Both the position numbers and the translations under genes were made by a program. Below the pieces are notes generated by a model. That model had not been told where the DNA came from. It worked only from the letters and a program-made list of their open reading frames with translations, and made no database searches. Shown here piece by piece: positions 1,137 through 27,294 of a stretch of DNA of 64,000 nucleotides; the first letter of the stretch is position 1; every line of letters starts with the position of its first letter. Location: positions 1,860,001 to 1,924,000 of the forward strand of contig JAXQJY010000033.1 in NCBI GenBank assembly GCA_037042185.1, read 5' to 3'. The DNA comes from Sordariomycetes sp. S80-01Y. Its lineage: Eukaryota; Ascomycota; Sordariomycetes.

Positions 1137-1701
1137 ATGTCTACCAAGGGAAGCTGCATGTGTGGGGAGACGGCCTTTGAGTTCACCGGTACGCTTCCGA
1201 TTCGACCATAACAATGGCGTGCTGACTGGGGTGCAGGAGAGCCGGCTGCCAAAGCACTCTGCCACTGTATCGACTGTCAGAAGGTGCTTCCCCTTATCCC
1301 TCCATCATAAACCAAGCTGACAGTAGCAGTGGTCTGGGGGTGCCTTTACTTCCAACGTTGTTGTACCGAGGACTTCATTGAAGGTTACCAAGGGTAAGAA
1401 ACGGATCAGAAATCTGATGCCAGGAGGAAGCCGCTAATTAGCCCTAGGGTCCCCTAAGACCTACGATGCCATTGGCGACTCTGGCAAGGTGAACAAGCAC
1501 TTCTTCTGCGGCAACTGTGGATCCAGCATGTACACCGAGCTGGAGATCATGCCCGATGTGGCGTGTGTGAAGGCCGGAAGTCTGGACGGCGGCGCCGCCA
1601 ACATGGGAGGCGAGGTCGGTGTTGAGTTCTACACCAAGGACAGACCGACATATTTGAAGGCCACCGAGGGTGCTAAGCAAGAGCCCAAGTTTGGATCTTG
1701 A
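1137..1701 (+). CDS. GFA/CENP-V domain protein (glutathione-dependent formaldehyde-activating fold)
   Basis: Four exons, 1137-1188, 1237-1283, 1330-1393 and 1448-1701, give 138 residues, the usual size for a single-domain GFA protein. The three introns are 46-54 nt with GT..AG ends, and CTGAC branch sites are visible in the first two. The zinc-binding pattern is complete: C7-x-C9, C26-x-C28-x2-C31 and C75-x2-C78, in SCMCG, LCHCIDCQK and FFCGNCGSS. Family members are small beta-rich zinc proteins, some described as glutathione-formaldehyde adduct enzymes; most fungal copies are uncharacterised. The start at 1137 is the only one that places the first CxC motif near the N-terminus. A single-ORF reading would find only the last exon. 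Confidence 0.88.
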
Positions 1702-2011
1702 ACAACCCAGACGGACAGAAAATCGAACCACAACTAGCAACAGCAGTATAGGCAATTGATGGTTCAGAATTCCGATTTCGCCTCTCCCTGTGACGGCTTC
1801 CTCGGTTGATGCCGTTCGTCAGGTCTACTGATAGGCTGAGCTGCTGCAAAATGATCAAAATGTAAAAGGGCGCCCATGATCAACTCCTCACGTTCCCACA
1901 AAGCCGCCATACAAGGCCGCACAATAGACCTCAATCACATCAGCAAACAGCTCGAGCTCTTTGTGAGATTGCTAAAAGTAGAGACACAGAAACATCCTAC
2001 AAGCAAGAATT
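1702..2011. other. Intergenic, 310 bp
   Basis: This is the 3' flank of the GFA gene, running up to the left border of the inverted-repeat unit. No gene was seen. Confidence 0.5.
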
Positions 2012-2017
2012 GGTATA

Positions 2018-2078
2018 GTAAAAGGCGAAATGGGTGTCGCTGGATTTTTAGTTAACTTTTTTAAGGAGGGTGGGGTAG
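2018..2078 (-). repeat. Left terminal inverted repeat
   Basis: This is the inverted partner of 4391-4452. The outermost 23 positions match exactly. The inner part differs at about a third of positions, with both transitions and transversions. It lies about 260 bp upstream of the HET start codon, so it is also part of the promoter region. Confidence 0.65.
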
Positions 2079-2340
2079 ACCTGTGGTTGATATGGCTTGC
2101 GGGACACGCCTGTAGTGTTGACGTATTTGAGGGGCAACACCTAATAGAGCCAGAACTGGCTGTTTTACCCCACTGAATTAGTGAATACTGGTCGTACACT
2201 TTCGCCTTACACACCTAGAAAAACAATTTACCGGAGTGCAACCGGAATCAGGCGCCAAGGTGGCAGCCAGATGGGATCTGGCGGTGCCCAGTTGCCGTTA
2301 GATACAATCGCTGCCATTACAACTGAGAAACCGAGCAAGC

Positions 2341-4125
2341 ATGAGCGCAAACCAGTCACGCCGGCGGGTTGATTCGGGACCAAGCTCCGCGAGTAGTATC
2401 AAACCCGCGGTAGACAAGACGCTGCCTTATCAAGGGAGAGAGCTCGACAAGGACAGCCTACGGCTGGTTCAGATACAGCCGGCCGTGCACGAGACAGATC
2501 TCGTAATCTGTACGCTCGGTGAGGTCACCTTCGGTAGCAGACCCAAGTTCGAGGCGCTATCGTACACTTGGGGTACCGAGAGGGCCGACGATGCCATTAT
2601 CCTGAATGGTCACCCGTTCGAGGTTAGAAGGAACCTTCTGGATGCCCTCCTCTTCCTCCGTCGCCAGGTCGCATCCGGAAAGGGGCAGCAGCTGTTTTGG
2701 ATCGACGCTATCTGCATCAACCAGAGTGATGTAGATGAACGGAATCGGCAGCTCCGAATCATGGACCAGATCTACTTTAGGGCCACCACCGTTGTAGTCT
2801 GGTTGGGGAACAAGTACACAGAGTTTCAAAGGGAGTTAGTGGGGAAAGTGAAGCCTGAGGAGGGTGAGGAGCGAGCGGAAGACTCCTCACAGAACGGCAA
2901 CAGCGTCCAGCAGCAGATGGTCCGACACTTGAGAACCGACGCATACTGGGACCGCCTATGGATCCTTCAAGAGATTGGGCGGGCGAAGAAGCTCCGAGTT
3001 TGCTTCGGAGACGAGTCCTTCTCGTGGGCGCGCTTCATGGACCTCATCACCATGCACAACAGCGATGGGAACACCGGGCCGCTGAGGCTGGACAGGCTAC
3101 TCCGTCAGGAGAAGTACAACGACTCGCACACCCTCAAGAGGCTGCTCGAAGAGCACAGAGAAGCAAAATGCTCCGAACCACGAGACAAAGTTTACGGGCT
3201 CGTCGGGCTTGCTTCAGACGCCGCAGAGTTTCCGATGGACTATACCAAGTCCCTTTACGAGGTGTGGAAGGATACGATGGTGTTCATGAATCAGTGGGGC
3301 TTGTTCAAGGAAGAATCCCAAATCCTCCCGATTGGGGCGCTAGTGAAGACGGCCCTCATGGAGGACTACGGCGACCCCTTAAGTCAGATCTCCAGAGAGC
3401 ACGAGGACCAAGTTGACCCGACCCAGCTCATCGAAACCAAGGAGAGTCGTCTGGTTTTCTGCCTCAAGGCAGTTCCGCTTGGGTGTGTCATCCACGTTGG
3501 ACCATCAGCCAGTGATGTTATTTCCAGACCTAACGAGGCATCAGCGTGGCGCATGGCTACCCAGCGCTTATTTCCAGCGACCGAACTAGGACTGGCTCAT
3601 CGGGAGCACGACAGGTTGCTCCACGCGCTCCTCGAATGCGACGAATCAGAAATTGAAACGAAATGCTTCAACAGGCCAAGTACTGTCGTCTGGGAGGACT
3701 CGGAGACATATCCCCAATATCAAAACGCGCAAAATTACATCAAGCAAGTTCGAAACGGCATAGATACCACAACGTTCCAGTTACCACAGATGCCACAACA
3801 AGCCACAGGCAGATTAGCATCTGTCCAGCCCCGGCTATACTTGGCTAAGAAATGGGGCGGTTCCACTCCACGGAAGATGGGAGTCGCCTCGGGTCTCGTC
3901 CAACAGGGAGACCTTGTTTGCTGGGTCCGCTCATCGAGGAAAGCCCTCTTGATCAGGGTTGTTGGAGAGGGCAAGGCGAGAGTGTTCGGAACGGCATTGG
4001 CGACGGAGGATATATATATCTCGACGGCAGACGACAACTACGCGCAACGATGGGAATCACTAAAACATGAGTGGAGTATAAACGCCAAGATAGATGCGGG
4101 CACAATATTCATACTCTTAGAGTAG
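2341..4125 (+). CDS. Heterokaryon incompatibility (HET) domain protein
   Basis: Intronless, 594 residues. The HET core is plain in order: FEALSYTWG near residue 78, LFWIDAICINQ near 120, the run MDQIYFRATTVVVWLG near 140-155, WDRLWILQEI near 205, and CSEPRDKVYGLVGLA near 280. These are the three conserved HET blocks plus the usual W-I-x-Q-E and D-K-V-Y-G-L elements. HET proteins trigger cell death when genetically different hyphae fuse. Partners are often NLR-type receptors, and one of that class lies 18 kb away. The C-terminal half (about 330-594) has no motif I know. Start: ATG at 2341 is the first ATG of the frame. The whole gene lies inside an inverted-repeat unit, which suggests it moved as cargo. 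Confidence 0.93.
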   Translation: MSANQSRRRVDSGPSSASSIKPAVDKTLPYQGRELDKDSLRLVQIQPAVHETDLVICTLGEVTFGSRPKFEALSYTWGTERADDAIILNGHPFEVRRNLLDALLFLRRQVASGKGQQLFWIDAICINQSDVDERNRQLRIMDQIYFRATTVVVWLGNKYTEFQRELVGKVKPEEGEERAEDSSQNGNSVQQQMVRHLRTDAYWDRLWILQEIGRAKKLRVCFGDESFSWARFMDLITMHNSDGNTGPLRLDRLLRQEKYNDSHTLKRLLEEHREAKCSEPRDKVYGLVGLASDAAEFPMDYTKSLYEVWKDTMVFMNQWGLFKEESQILPIGALVKTALMEDYGDPLSQISREHEDQVDPTQLIETKESRLVFCLKAVPLGCVIHVGPSASDVISRPNEASAWRMATQRLFPATELGLAHREHDRLLHALLECDESEIETKCFNRPSTVVWEDSETYPQYQNAQNYIKQVRNGIDTTTFQLPQMPQQATGRLASVQPRLYLAKKWGGSTPRKMGVASGLVQQGDLVCWVRSSRKALLIRVVGEGKARVFGTALATEDIYISTADDNYAQRWESLKHEWSINAKIDAGTIFILLE

Positions 4126-4390
4126 ATTCGAGGTTATTAGTTGTACTACAGTTATGAGCATAAGTAGCTTCCTCTAAAAACAAATATCCATATTGTTAAA
4201 ATCTCCACATACCGGTAGCACTCCCTAACAGTCATCCAAACGTCGGAGGAAATGTCCACAACCTTTGGGGGGAAACCGGCGCAAGCCGCCTTTTACAGTG
4301 TTCGGCAGGATTTAGTCTAACAGCGCACGGCTCCTGTCAGGGACTTGACGCCTCAATACCTGGCTGCTACAGGGCTTTACATTACAAATG

Positions 4391-4452
4391 CTGCCCCGCA
4401 TCCCTTAACAAAGTTATTTAACGCTTTTGGCGACACCCATTTCGCCTTTTAC
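4391..4452 (+). repeat. Right terminal inverted repeat
   Basis: This is the inverted partner of 2018-2078. It ends 15 bp before the sirtuin stop codon, so the element border nearly abuts the end of the convergent sirtuin gene. A second copy of its terminal word CGCCTTTTAC lies inside the unit at 4287-4296. Confidence 0.65.
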
Positions 4453-4467
4453 GGTACACTCAATTAC

Positions 4468-5836
4468 TCAGAGTTCCATTAACCAGTCTGGCCTTTCGAG
4501 CTTCTGCCCCCGCGCTCCTTGGTCGTGTACATCGGCCTTATCCGTGTCCGCCGTGAGATCAACAGTATCCATCATTGTCCCCAATTCTTCCGGCGTTGGG
4601 TTCCCATGCAGCTCTCCCAGCTTCTGCAACCGCCAGTTCCCGTCTTGCGGGTCGAACTCGAGAAGATAGCGCGTCTCTTCAGTGCCGTCATAGTCGTGCG
4701 TCAGCTGGAGATCGGGCTCGCTGTAGTGACCCATGAACTCCAGCCCGAGGTTGACTTGCATGCCAGGCTGCAAGCTGTCCCGTACGTTGATGACAAATGG
4801 CTCTGCTCTGACAATTCTTCTCGTCCCTTCCAGCCTGACCGATTGCAGAAAGGTTTGCGGTGTCCCATCTGTGTCGACCCCGGTGGCTGTGATCCGATAC
4901 CGGTCTTCCTCTTGGATCTCAATCTTGACAACCAGCAGCCTCCTCAACTTGAAGGACGGGATGGTCAGCCCGAGCTTTTGCATAACCTTGGTCATCAGGA
5001 TATCCCCTTCCGTAAACACTCGCACCTCGCAGAAGCCGTCAATGTCAGTCTTCTGCAGGTTGCAGATCACCAAGTCCGCCTTCCTCCTCTTACCTACCGT
5101 CTCGGGGATCTCGTTCGCAGGCGGCACCGTTAACGAGCTCCCAAGCACAAGACAGAGATCTGCTTCCTTGGCATGGTCCCGCGCAAGCTGCAACACCTTC
5201 TCCGGCAAAAACTCCCCGAAGTTAACGATGGTGTCGTGCAGCGCCCCTCCGCAGAGAGCGCATTTACGGCCGGTGCGGTGATCGTGATCCGAGTGCTCGT
5301 AGCTTGCGACGGCGCGAAAGTCTCGAAGGTACTCTTTGCCGCAGTCTCGACATGTTTCGCGATTGCTGTTCCCGTGTAGTTCGGAGATGTTTTCCTGCAC
5401 ACGGTCAGCGCGGCAGAAGTGGTGGTATCGTCGCGCGGACCGGAAGTATCCCGCTTCGTCGATGAAGACCATCACAGTTCTGGCTGACGAGATACTTCAG
5501 TATCCCCTTGTTCTGAAGCTCGACGAGTGCCATGTGAGTCAAAGTTGGAATCGCCTGAAGGGTGTTGGCAGTCTTCGTCCTGGCCCGGCCCTGGGCTCTC
5601 AGTGTCCAGTTGCCATCAGGACCCCTAAAATCAGGGATGCCTTCTCGCTGTCAAACGCATTCCCACTTGTGCACCGTGGGCGAATTACCAGCTGAAGTTG
5701 ATACACCTGCGCCCGTGAACGCGATGAAGTGCTTGCTCTTGCTGATGAGAGCCGCGAGCGCGTCTGCCTTCTTGTCCACGGCTTCGTCAGGTTCGCGTCG
5801 CTCTTTCGCCGCTTTCGCAGGCGCGATGTCAGCCAT
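4468..5836 (-). CDS. SIRT6/7-type NAD-dependent protein deacylase (sirtuin)
   Basis: Three exons on the minus strand, 5836-5689, 5640-5441 and 5394-4468, give 424 residues. Introns of 48 nt and 46 nt were placed by reading across frames. NAD-binding GAGVSTSAGIPDFRGP spans residues 42-57, QNCDGLHRRSG lies around 103-113, the catalytic histidine is H123 in ELHGN, and the zinc ligands are C131, C134, C161 and C164. The spacing and the GGALHDTIVNFGE and LGSSLTVPPANEIP segments resemble class IV (SIRT6/7) enzymes, which act on chromatin. About 165 residues follow the catalytic core without a known domain. The stop codon lies 342 bp from the convergent HET stop. A poly-T run sits just upstream of the start, at about 5890-5899. 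Confidence 0.9.
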
Positions 5837-22451: not shown

Positions 22452-25400
22452 ATGACACAGCCCACAGACGAACCAGATGTTGCTACTTTTCAGTCTCGTG
22501 CCACTACCATTGTAGCACAAGAAACCGCAGCCCAGACTGGAGTTCAACAAGGCTCGCTCATACGTAGAAGCACGGCCAAAGATACAGAGCTCCAGCCAAA
22601 GGATGCCGGTGTCATATCACAATGCTTCAAAGAAGCGATCATCGTAAGTTAGGCTCGCCGCTTTACTCTGACCAAGCAGTGCCGGCAGAAACGAGGACGT
22701 CGATCCGGTCTCCGATACTGATACGGATTTCCAGAGATATAATCGAATGCGAGAAGTGGATGGCGAAGCAAAGTTTAAGAAGCTCTGTACCGACCCGGGT
22801 GCTAACAATGTCGACCCTACCGTCACAGCGTACAATCTTGTGGTCGCGGCCGCAAAAGCACGTTCAAAGTACCTGGAAGGAGGCTCTAGAAAGAGGCTAG
22901 GAGCTTTCTTCGATGATATTATGTTTCATCTAAACAGATACTCACGATCAATTGACGTTCTGATACAGCATGACCCGACAGTGTCTTCCCTGATTTGGGG
23001 ACCCGTCAGGGCTCTACTCGAGGTTGGCAAGACTCCTTACTCTCACCGTTATCTTCGGGTCAGATGCTGATCGCTTGATTGCCATTTATTAGGTAGTAGC
23101 GGACAACCGACAAGCATCGGAGCTGGCTGCCGATGGGGTGCTTGTGGTCGTCCAGCATACCAGTCTGTGGAACAAGGCGGCGGCGCTGTTCGGTTGTGAA
23201 ACAGGCGTTCGTGAAGCTCTCACGAACTTGTACTTGCGCATGCTTGATTTTCTTTTACACGCTGCTGAACGGTTTGGAAGAACACCCCTCAGTCAGTTGA
23301 CGTCCTTTAGCACGCCATTCTTACAATTGATTCACAAGAGGACTTATACTGATCCAGCTGTTCAGAGAGATTCGGCGCATCGCTTTGCTCTGGAGAGCGA
23401 CAAAGAATGGAGGAGAGACTCAAAAAGCTTCAGGAAGCCGCGAAACTCCTAATTTCAGAGGCACAAATGGAAAGTAAGTGACCCTGGGCCGCAAGAATTA
23501 CACCAGCTACGGCGTTGTAGCAGACTGACAGCCATTTGCAGGCAACAGCGACAGTAAGTATAGTCAACACAGCACTTCATCAACTTATGTCGACCTCTTT
23601 TCATCGCCCAATCACTTCGGTCGTTGACTGTGAGCCTAGCCAAGAAAGCAGGAGAAAATGCCTTTCAAAGCATTACCAGTAAGTGTTCCGCCTGACGTAT
23701 TCCTACTGTCCGCGCCAGAAACCTCGTCGAGTTTTCATGCCCAGCTCGAATCCTCTTTTGCTTTTTCAGTTGTTGCCTCAAAGCTCGCAAATCTTCTGAG
23801 CTTGTTGTTCCCTATTTCGCCGCCCAGGCTCCCTTGTAACGCCATAGCTCATTGCCGCACGGTTAGTCCCGTGAAATCATGCATGAGGCTACCTACATGG
23901 GTTTGTGTGAGGCTGGAAATGCAGCCTATAGCAACTGAGTCCAGATCGGCCTCGACGAACGGCCACGATGCGGGGCTGTCCCGGCGATCTCATCGAGGGC
24001 GCACAAGGCTTTTATCCCAACGTCTTTTCTTTACCATCACCAAGCCCTGCAATGCCATGGACGAGTTATATGGCATTCCTCCCCAGGGCTTGCGGCCGAC
24101 CGACACTAATTTGCCGTGTTTCACAACAGGGATCGAGAACGACGTGCGGGCACTTGGGAGGACTGTCGCGGCCTCGTCTACTTTACAAAGTGAGGCTTCC
24201 TGTTCTCCGCCGCCCAGCCTCATTTAAATGAGACTGCAAAGGGCCGAAGCCCCTGTTGTAGATACTGACAATCTCAAGGCCACTTCCAGCACGCTGTCCT
24301 CATTAAGGAATGGATCGGCCGCCAGGCAAATTGCCTGGCAGAGTCGGACGCTCGACTACATACTCCAAAGCCCAGCGATAGGCCGCCTTGGGTTGTACAC
24401 GAGCTCCAGTATTTACAATGGCTGGATCAACAGAACCCGGGCCTCTTGTGGGTCACGGGAAACTCAGGTTAGTGTAGATCAGCCGCGGTTCTTGACTCAC
24501 CGATACAAGTGAGCAGTCGAGGGAGAGCTATGTCTTAGCCTTGCGGTCACGGATAGGTGCTAATGTCTCTGAAGGCACAGGGAAGTCCCATCTTGCAAAA
24601 CGCCTCGCGGAGTTTTTAACAACTTCAAATCCGAGCTGCAAAATCTTGTCCCACGGCTATCAATCTAACTACTCCACGCTGCAGAGGAGTCCCAACGCCT
24701 TGGCCTTTTCGATCATCGACCAACTGTGGCAGAACAACGCGCTCACTGGCCTGCCGCAAAGCACTTTGCATAAGCTATCGGCTCTCTTCACTCACTTTAG
24801 GAGGCATCCAGAGCGCTGCCGCTTCTCGCAGACGTGGGAAATCTGTGTCGACTTGCTCAAGCAACTCAACGATTTCGTGCTGATTGTTGACGGGATGGAC
24901 GAATGCTCCTTTGATGAATGCGAGGACGGCCAGACTCCAGTTGAAGCGCTCGAAGCTCTGCTTGAGTCAACTGACGGGAAAGTCGCCATCTTTTGTCGAC
25001 CAAGCTTTCCGCTGAAAATCGGCACGGATGAGTCTAGCCGACCGAACGAAATAAGGCTCACTACCGAGAAGACACGAGATGATTTCGGGGAAATGTGTGA
25101 ATTTGAGTCTCAAAAATTGAAGTGGGATCCTGGCCTCCGGTCAAAGGCGAAAGAAATGATCATCCTGCGGGCGGAAGGCTCCTTTTTGTCTGCAAAGCTC
25201 AGGTTCGAAGAGCTGTCTAAGCTTCGCGTACATAAGGACATCCATCTGGCAATGGGCGCAACGCTGCCTGATACTGTTCAAGAGTACTACCAACGCGGTC
25301 TGAACCGACTAGTCGACGAGGCTCCCGGGAAGGATACCGAAGCTTGTCGCCATATCCTCCTTGTTCTCCTCGGGACACGCCGCCTTTTGACCTTGAACGA

Positions 25401-27294
25401 GCTCTCCAGCGCTACAGGCTTGATTCCCGCACTTACAGGGCCCCTGATTCCGCAATGGCTTTATCCAATCGTCTCATGGGATAGAGGCATTCCTGTTCTC
25501 GCTCATGCAACGGTCCGCGACTTTCTTTCGGCAGCAGACTACGCTTCGAAAGCTCCTCCTGAATTGCGCTTTGCACCCGATGAGCCTAACTCATTCATGG
25601 CTGAACGCTGTCTGGAATGTCTGTTGGATGAAAAATTTGGGGATCCCGATCGAATTGCTCGACGTTTGCGAGCAAGATTTGGCCTCGAAAAAATAGCAGA
25701 GGACCCGGTTTGCGGCTTCTACGCTTATGCTGCGGCAAACTGGGCTCTTCACCTCATCCAGATCAAGAAGCCCAGTCGTGAGCTAGTGGAGCTAGCGGGG
25801 AAATTCCTTTCTGCTCTCCAGTTTACTTACTGGGCAGAGTATGTCTTCATCGACTTTGGCGATTTTCAGGCCATCCGCGCTACTCAGACGCAACTCCTTA
25901 ACTGGTCAAATCAATTAGAGAAGGACGAGCAGCAAGTGCTGGGCCTAGAGGGCTACTATGAGGTCCCTTATAAGAGCCTTAACCAGCTGTACGAATCGAG
26001 AAAAGAAGACGACAGAACTTTGCCTTGGCTCCCTTTGATGCAGCTAGGCTTTTATTATTTCGATATTGGCAGAATCCATGATATGCAAAAGGTACGGACC
26101 TACGTCGCTGATGGGCTATGCAAGCTTCTTGGCAGAAAGAATCCTCTCACCCTCAGGGCTCGATCAGAGGCCGCATTTGCACTTCTCAATCGAGGGGACC
26201 TCTTTAAAGCACGCAAAACCTGGACGAATGTCGCAGCCGACCAGATGGATACCGTGCCAGAGGAAGACAGGAGCGAACTCTATCGAACCCTGTTCTATAA
26301 AGGAATGGCTGAATACTTGATGAATGACTATACGACCGCCTTACGCACCCTGGCGTACGTGTCGGCCAAATTCCTCGGCTCCAAAGGTCCGACGAGCAAC
26401 CCCTTCTTGGTGGCGGAGCTATGGTACGCCCAGGTGAACGCAACTCGGGGAGAGCTTGAGCAAGCTTCGACAACTATGGAAGACATACGCCAAAAGCGAG
26501 AAGAAAAGTACGGGTCCAGCGATGGGTCTGCAACCCTTACCCTAACATTCCTGAGCGATGTTTACCGCAAACTCGGAGAGCAGGGAAAGGCCATTAAGTA
26601 CTTGGAAGAAGCTCTAAAGCAGCGGAAACGCCTGTGGGCAATAACACATCCCCTCGTAATTGACGCTTCGCTGAGGCTTGCTATTACTTATCGAGACTTC
26701 GACCTGGAGGATGATGCGTGGGACTTGATCGATGAAGTTGAACAAAAGGGGCGCCTAGAAGAGGAGGATAAGTTCTATGAGCTGTGCCAAGCTCGTCATT
26801 TGAAGGGTCTCTTGCAATTTGGGGATGGTAACACAGACGAAGCGATCCTCATCCTACAGCGACTCATCATCGACACCGATCCCAACAAAGTGATCCGGCC
26901 CCTGCACTGGATTCGTACCGACCTTGCAGACATGCTGCGCCATCGCAATCACCCGGGAGATGGAGGCACTGCAAGCATGTTATTCGACGGTGTGATTGTA
27001 GCTCAAGAGACAAGGGCGCAGCAAGATGCGCATCGTGGGTCGGTCGGCGAGCCTGACCCTCCTCAGCAGCTTGAGCTAGCAGAAAAGGCGTTGAGGCTCT
27101 GCCGGTCTGAAAGTCTGAGCAAAGCCCAGAAATTGCTCGAAGACGAGGGGTTTCGGTGGAAAAGCGAACGATCGTTGTGGCTGATTGCGGGGATGCCTGC
27201 AGCAGATACCACGGTGATGAAACCACCGCGGGGGCTTGGGGACAGGTCGTCAGCGAGTCCTTTGATTTCTGATAGCAGTGATACGGAAGCTTAA
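22452..27294 (+). CDS. STAND/NLR-type protein: DUF7708-like N-terminus, NACHT NTPase, TPR repeats
   Basis: Secure exons are 22452-22643, 22735-23022, the start of the next at 23093, a coiled-coil exon ending at 23473, 23542-23553 (12 nt), 23640-23678 (39 nt), one running from about 24279 to 24467, and 24575-27294. The exon borders between 23290 and 23360, and the exons between 23679 and 24278, are not resolved. The N-terminal block (RKRLGAFFDDIMFHLNRYS, SSLIWGPVRALLEVVAD, FLLHAAERFGRTPLSQL) resembles the DUF7708 module that precedes NACHT in fungi. Walker A is GNSGTGKS, formed across the 107-nt intron at 24468-24574. Walker B is FVLIVDGMDECSF. TPR-like helices (LWYAQVNATRGELEQA, SDVYRKLGEQGKAIKYLEEA) fill the C-terminal third. 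Such proteins are candidate self/non-self receptors. A damaged linker cannot be excluded, although the 907-codon last exon is intact. Confidence 0.8.

What the first reader, a model, noticed from the sequence alone, without database searches (positions are those of the whole stretch)
2012..4458. HET gene packaged between inverted repeats with a target-site-like duplication
Identical 23-bp inverted ends (2018-2040 and 4430-4452) sit inside longer diverged inverted repeats of about 61 bp. They are directly bordered by GGTATA and GGTACA. The only gene inside is a full-length HET gene. HET genes are known to be patchily distributed and can travel in large mobile elements. A 2.4-kb TIR cassette with one HET gene would be a compact way to move an incompatibility gene.
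Basis: partly seen in the sequence, partly recalled or inferred. Interest (0 to 1): 0.75.

Follow-up and report, generated by a model that had tools for sequence, protein, structure and literature searches.

The report
Fungal incompatibility gene between inverted repeats
A fungal self/non-self recognition gene sits between two matching inverted DNA ends, and further copies of that end were found only in front of two immune-receptor-type genes, which suggests but does not prove a small mobile cassette for such genes.

Summary
A HET gene (594 aa, window 2341-4125) lies between 23-bp exact, 28-bp 93% inverted repeats, far above chance. The claimed target-site duplication is weak: its GTAC core is a palindrome inside the repeat, so it must look duplicated, and it recurs beside the same repeat on another contig.

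Searches of the genome (30.9 Mb) found four copies of the end. Two flank this HET gene. Two, on contig C15, lie about 0.6 kb upstream of two paralogous PNP_UDP genes (NLR type), pointing towards them; one equals the right end over 28 bp. Similarity between these two loci starts within 3 bp of the repeat's outer edge, so the repeat marks a unit boundary there too. No convincing inverted partner was found on C15 (92 kb searched).

Best reading: a 2.4-kb non-autonomous terminal-inverted-repeat element with HET as cargo, from an end family that also marks one edge of an NLR module. Mobility is not shown: the cassette is single copy, no autonomous copy was found, and no sister genome was available for the empty-site test. 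IR-flanked genes are known in Fusarium; my paper searches turned up no HET cassette of this kind.

The parts
2013..2040 (+). left terminal inverted repeat (28 bp; exact 23-bp core 2018-2040)
   Evidence: the repeat finder; alignment; whole-genome pattern
4430..4457 (-). right terminal inverted repeat; identical over 28 bp to C15:258437-258464
2041..2066 (+). diverged inner part of the left repeat (AT-rich block)
   Evidence: gapped alignment; inner left/right score reached by 2 of 300 shuffles
4403..4429 (-). diverged inner part of the right repeat
2341..4125 (+). HET gene, single open frame, 594 aa, PF06985 at residues 70-211; the other ATG frames of 60 aa or more inside are 61-152 aa long and overlap it
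2012..2017 (.). GGTATA, proposed TSD; more likely the outer part of the repeat
   Evidence: sequence; comparison
4453..4458 (.). GGTACA, proposed TSD; more likely the outer part of the repeat
   Evidence: sequence; comparison
4468..5472 (-). open frame of the neighbouring sirtuin gene (SIR2, PF02146); 10 bases separate its end from the right repeat

Best explanation
The 2.4-kb stretch is (or was) a non-autonomous terminal-inverted-repeat DNA element whose only cargo is a complete HET gene. Its 28-bp end (GTACCGTAAAAGGCGAAATGGGTGTCGC) would be the site for a transposase supplied in trans. The same end bounds one side of a second unit on contig C15, made of a 0.6-kb 5' region plus a PNP_UDP exon of an NLR-type gene, whose opposite end has been lost, perhaps when the downstream exons were swapped (NACHT-type and ankyrin in one paralogue, TPR in the other). 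Shown: the repeats, the intact gene, the four copies found, and the boundary on C15. Inferred: transposition, the transposase, loss of the far end on C15, and any role in incompatibility.
For: 23-bp exact inverted ends far above chance. Of the 23 other HET matches in the genome, 12 were compared and none has a flanking exact inverted repeat longer than 10 bp (11, 1; 5 of the 12 had under 200 bp of downstream sequence). Four copies of the end found: two at this gene, two 5' of PNP_UDP genes. C15:258437-258464 equals the right end for 28 of 28 bases. The two C15 loci are 86-98% alike in all eleven 60-bp steps from 258460 to 259119 and unlike outside the repeat; BLAST starts at 258440 and 275427, the first base of the CCGTAAAA form of the end. 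Left, right and first C15 end share 23 of 23 outer bases while the inner sequence differs, as expected for short transposase-binding ends.
Against: No second copy of the cassette found; the best-scoring HET relative in the genome is 34% identical over residues 36-294, the highest identity 41% over residues 67-200. No convincing inverted partner on C15: the two nearest candidates have 7 differences in 25 (264492-264513) and 6 in 25 (294442-294464, 19-36 kb away), levels that shuffled motifs also reach. No reliable TSD. Three DDE_1 transposase matches exist, none by a copy of the repeat; other transposase families were not searched. The single ends on C15 are also what a shared promoter element would look like.
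Confidence: 0.5

Rival explanations
1. The 28-bp motif is a host regulatory element shared by a few non-self-recognition genes; the copy behind the HET gene is a second binding site, perhaps for looping, termination or an antisense transcript.
For: All three 5' copies point towards a HET or PNP_UDP gene at 0.3-0.6 kb from its ATG. The 5' region of the C15 pair is 86-98% identical while the PNP exon has 130 third-position substitutions, so it may be constrained.
Against: Of the 24 HET and 45 NPHP3_N matches in the genome (lower bounds, some are pieces of one gene), two genes carry it, plus the second PNP_UDP gene, which has no NPHP3_N match. The 3' copy lies between convergent genes. Similarity of the C15 pair stops abruptly at the motif. 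Gene conversion explains the conserved 5' region as well.
Confidence: 0.17
2. Two independently inserted fragments of an extinct MITE or other repeat happen to flank the HET gene in inverted orientation; a third sat next to an NLR gene and was copied with it.
For: Single ends exist on C15 without a convincing partner. The C15 stretch contains other dispersed repeats.
Against: A dead repeat family would be expected to leave more copies; no further one was found within 3 mismatches of 21 bases or by the gapped pattern, though more diverged ones would be missed. The 23-bp outer ends on both sides of the gene are identical.
Confidence: 0.15
3. The inverted repeats come from a local inverted duplication or ectopic recombination around the HET gene and never moved as an element.
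For: The outer AATTG/CAATT and the inner AT-rich blocks also pair weakly, so the repeat may be longer and older.
Against: Does not explain the exact 28-bp copy on another contig beside an NLR-type gene.
Confidence: 0.1

Closest known systems
Fusarium oxysporum mimp MITEs and IR-flanked SIX genes (SIX12; SIX3/SIX5) (PMC3599309, passages seen)
   Same: Inverted repeats flank one or two non-transposon genes; for SIX12 the authors suggest mobilisation by a transposase that recognises the repeats. The paper also describes mimps, and mimp inverted repeats, upstream of effector genes.
   Different: Mimps are multicopy (table in the passages: 54, 45 and 4 copies on three chromosome classes) and have a helper family (recalled); here four copies of the end were found and the genes are HET and NLR type. 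The end sequences were not compared by any search.
Starship giant transposons carrying HET or NLR cargo (PMC9594970 and PMC12134995, passages seen)
   Same: Mobile DNA that carries heterokaryon-incompatibility and NACHT genes; sometimes with terminal inverted repeats.
   Different: Starships are large, have a DUF3435 captain and varied cargo; this unit is 2.4 kb with one gene, and the genome shows only two short partial DUF3435 matches.
Tc1/mariner-type non-autonomous elements (TA target; recalled)
   Same: Short inverted ends, and TA just outside the ends at all four copies, shifted by one base in one of them.
   Different: No transposase linked; the TA may belong to the repeat itself.

Membership tests
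Non-autonomous TIR (class II) element | terminal inverted repeats at both ends | tested here: met
   23 bp exact, 28 bp at 93%
Non-autonomous TIR (class II) element | target-site duplication | tested here: inconclusive
   GGTATA/GGTACA contain a palindrome that recurs beside the repeat on C15; TA possible
Non-autonomous TIR (class II) element | more than one copy of the element in the genome | tested here: not met
   whole element found once; only the end recurs
Non-autonomous TIR (class II) element | autonomous partner with the same ends | tested here: not met
   no further copy of the end by the 21-mer with 3 mismatches or the gapped pattern; one transposase family searched, DDE_1: 3 matches, none by the repeat. 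Diverged ends would be missed
Non-autonomous TIR (class II) element | empty site in a relative | not testable with these tools
   the genome has no relatives in the collection (statement)
Starship | DUF3435 captain | tested here: not met
   two short partial matches only, on C3 and C1
HET-domain protein (PF06985) | full-length HET domain over the cut-off | tested here: met
   104.9 bits against 22.5, profile 1-146/146
HET-domain protein (PF06985) | triggers incompatibility or cell death | not testable with these tools
   needs expression and strain-fusion tests

The most novel reading that the evidence does not exclude
A small transposon end family preferentially moves non-self-recognition genes: it carries a HET gene as sole cargo and supplies 5' regions and effector exons to NLR genes, so that one end sequence serves both arms of fungal allorecognition.
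Probability: 0.13. Interest if true: 0.75.

Novelty: new variant of a known kind. Interest (0 to 1): 0.5.

Why it matters
HET and NLR genes vary widely between fungal strains, and how they spread is only partly explained (giant Starships, recombination in clusters). A compact one-gene cassette whose end also marks the edge of an NLR module would be a simple, testable route, and it gives a 28-bp probe that can be run against any fungal genome.

Tried and rejected
Starship cargo: rejected, only two short partial DUF3435 matches. A general HET/NLR promoter motif: rejected as general, since two genes among 24 HET and 45 NPHP3_N matches carry it, plus one PNP_UDP-TPR gene outside those lists. A near-match by a HET gene on C14 (2 mismatches in 17) was dropped: 10 such two-mismatch places were found against 6 for the backwards control, and it lies inside the open frame of that gene. 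The other two-mismatch places were dropped as chance; one, C2:384266, fits the 23-mer with 4 mismatches (L008). A partner end on C15: two weak candidates, at the level of shuffled motifs (6 or fewer differences: 1 place in the real 92 kb beyond the two known copies; 3 of 5 shuffled motifs had one). Structured RNA: no Rfam match in 1700-4700. Exact 23-mer in viral contigs and in the prokaryote genome collection: no match. HET in the PDB by sequence: none up to E 1. Similarity of the HET 5' region to the C15 5' region beyond the repeat: not significant (19 and 25 of 300 shuffles reach it; BLAST finds only the ends). First HET control used the wrong strand for minus-strand loci and was replaced.

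Full report
Observation. The window holds an intact HET gene at 2341-4125 (594 aa, PF06985 E 6e-30, profile 1-146/146). It lies between inverted repeats 2013-2040 and 4430-4457, 28 nt at 93%, with an exact 23-bp core. A gapped alignment extends the pair to 2008-2066 against 4403-4465. No other exact inverted repeat of 16 bp or more at 300-6000 bp spacing exists in the 64 kb, and 20 of 20 Markov simulations gave none. As a gene-based control, 12 of the 23 other HET matches of the genome, those whose DNA had been fetched, were examined (11, 1): the longest flanking exact inverted repeat was 10 bp, against 23 here. Five of the 12 had under 200 bp of downstream sequence, so this control is partial. 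The neighbours are a GFA-type gene and a convergent sirtuin.

Target-site duplication. GTAC is its own reverse complement, so any inverted repeat that includes it looks like a direct repeat too. The first copy on C15 is preceded by GGTACC, and the right end read from outside by TGTACC; the right end and that C15 copy agree for 28 of 28 bases including GTACC. The six bases are therefore better read as the outer part of the repeat. A TA duplication is possible but cannot be told apart from the repeat.

Genome-wide copies. The genome is 30.9 Mb in 16 contigs. The whole element was found once. The 21-mer with up to 3 mismatches occurs three times: both window ends and C15:258442 (backwards control 0). 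A gapped pattern adds C15:275431, for four copies (control 0). More diverged copies would be missed by both.

The C15 copies. The first lies 587 bp before an open frame with a PNP_UDP_1 domain (259052-260014), followed by a frame with NPHP3_N and ankyrin repeats (260115-263330): NLR type. The second precedes a paralogous PNP_UDP frame at 78% protein identity, followed by a different frame with TPRs. That each pair of frames forms one gene across an intron is my inference. In both the repeat points towards the gene. The DNA match between the two loci starts at 258440 and 275427, the first base of the CCGTAAAA form of the end and 3 bp inside the 28-bp form, and ends at 259968 and 276987, near the end of the PNP frame. 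Outside the repeat the two loci are unlike (38% identity in 258340-258399; the best local score is reached by 158 of 300 shuffles). The repeat therefore marks the edge of a duplicated or shuffled unit, independently of the HET locus.

How surprising is the NLR context? The genome shows 24 HET and 45 NPHP3_N matches (lower bounds, and some matches are pieces of one gene). By my arithmetic, 69 genes with 0.7 kb upstream each, in one orientation, cover about 0.1% of the two strands; if any place within about 3 kb of such a gene counted, it would be about 1%. The two C15 copies are related by duplication, so this is one independent coincidence, not two.

What does not fit. In 92 kb of C15 (230000-321999) two inverted-orientation candidates for a far end lie beyond the first copy: 264492-264513 with 7 differences in 25, and 294442-294464 with 6. 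Shuffled motifs do as well: 4 of 4 reach 7 in 32 kb, although the reversed motif does not, and 3 of 5 reach 6 or fewer in the 92 kb. So no convincing partner. The cassette has no second copy; the best-scoring relative of its protein in this genome is 34% identical over residues 36-294, and the highest identity is 41% over residues 67-200. DUF3435 gives only two short partial matches, so a Starship context is not supported.

An oddity that bears on the regulatory rival. Between the two C15 loci, all eleven 60-bp steps from 258460 to 259119 (the 5' region and the first 68 bp of the PNP frame) are 86-98% identical; the fourteen steps from 259120 to 259959 are 65-88%. The PNP frame has 46, 29 and 130 substitutions at first, second and third positions. 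A well-conserved 5' region in front of more diverged exons means either recent gene conversion of the 5' region or selection on it. I think conversion likelier, because it covers the whole stretch evenly, but selection is not excluded.

Mechanism and rivals. The best reading (0.5) is a non-autonomous terminal-inverted-repeat element with HET as cargo, served by a transposase that is absent or unrecognised here. Rivals are a shared regulatory element (0.17), chance flanking by two relics (0.15) and a local inverted duplication (0.1).

Literature. Ten searches of the held PMC library were used; four returned no paper. Among the titles and abstract beginnings listed by the other six I saw no TIR element with HET as sole cargo; most of the listed papers were not opened. 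Passages of PMC3599309 describe SIX12 and the SIX3/SIX5 pair flanked by inverted repeats and possibly mobilised by a transposase, and mimp MITEs in effector promoters: the closest precedent. Passages of PMC9594970 and PMC12134995 concern HET or NLR genes in Starships. [quoted passage not shown]

Verdict. Real and non-random; a plausible but unproven compact HET cassette. The new and most interesting part is the end shared with an NLR module. Interest 0.5.

Noticed in passing
C15:258440-259968 and 275427-276987 (L024, L032, L033): The 5' non-coding region of two paralogous PNP_UDP genes is 86-98% identical in every 60-bp step, while the coding exon after its first 68 bp is 65-88% identical with 130 third-position changes: recent gene conversion or constraint.
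   Followed up: partly
C15:258000-322000 (L024, L032-L035, L038, L039): An NLR-rich stretch with 99-bp (ankyrin-type) and 126-bp (TPR-type) tandem repeats that are much alike, in which the same PNP_UDP exon is joined to different downstream frames.
   Followed up: partly
C15:238114, 250324, 255861, 292342, 297085, 307232: A dispersed repeat of about 200 bp; the four longer copies begin TGTTACGG and all six copies end GTGTTACA. It looks like a solo LTR or MITE.
   Followed up: partly
C15:284900-285496, minus strand: A broken fragment of the same PNP_UDP module, without the end repeat.
   Followed up: partly
window 24571-27294: An NLR-type gene with NPHP3_N and TPR matches in the same window.
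   Followed up: no
window 4457-4470: The right repeat ends 10 bases from the stop codon of the convergent sirtuin frame; whether the sirtuin C-terminus was altered could not be checked without relatives.
   Followed up: no
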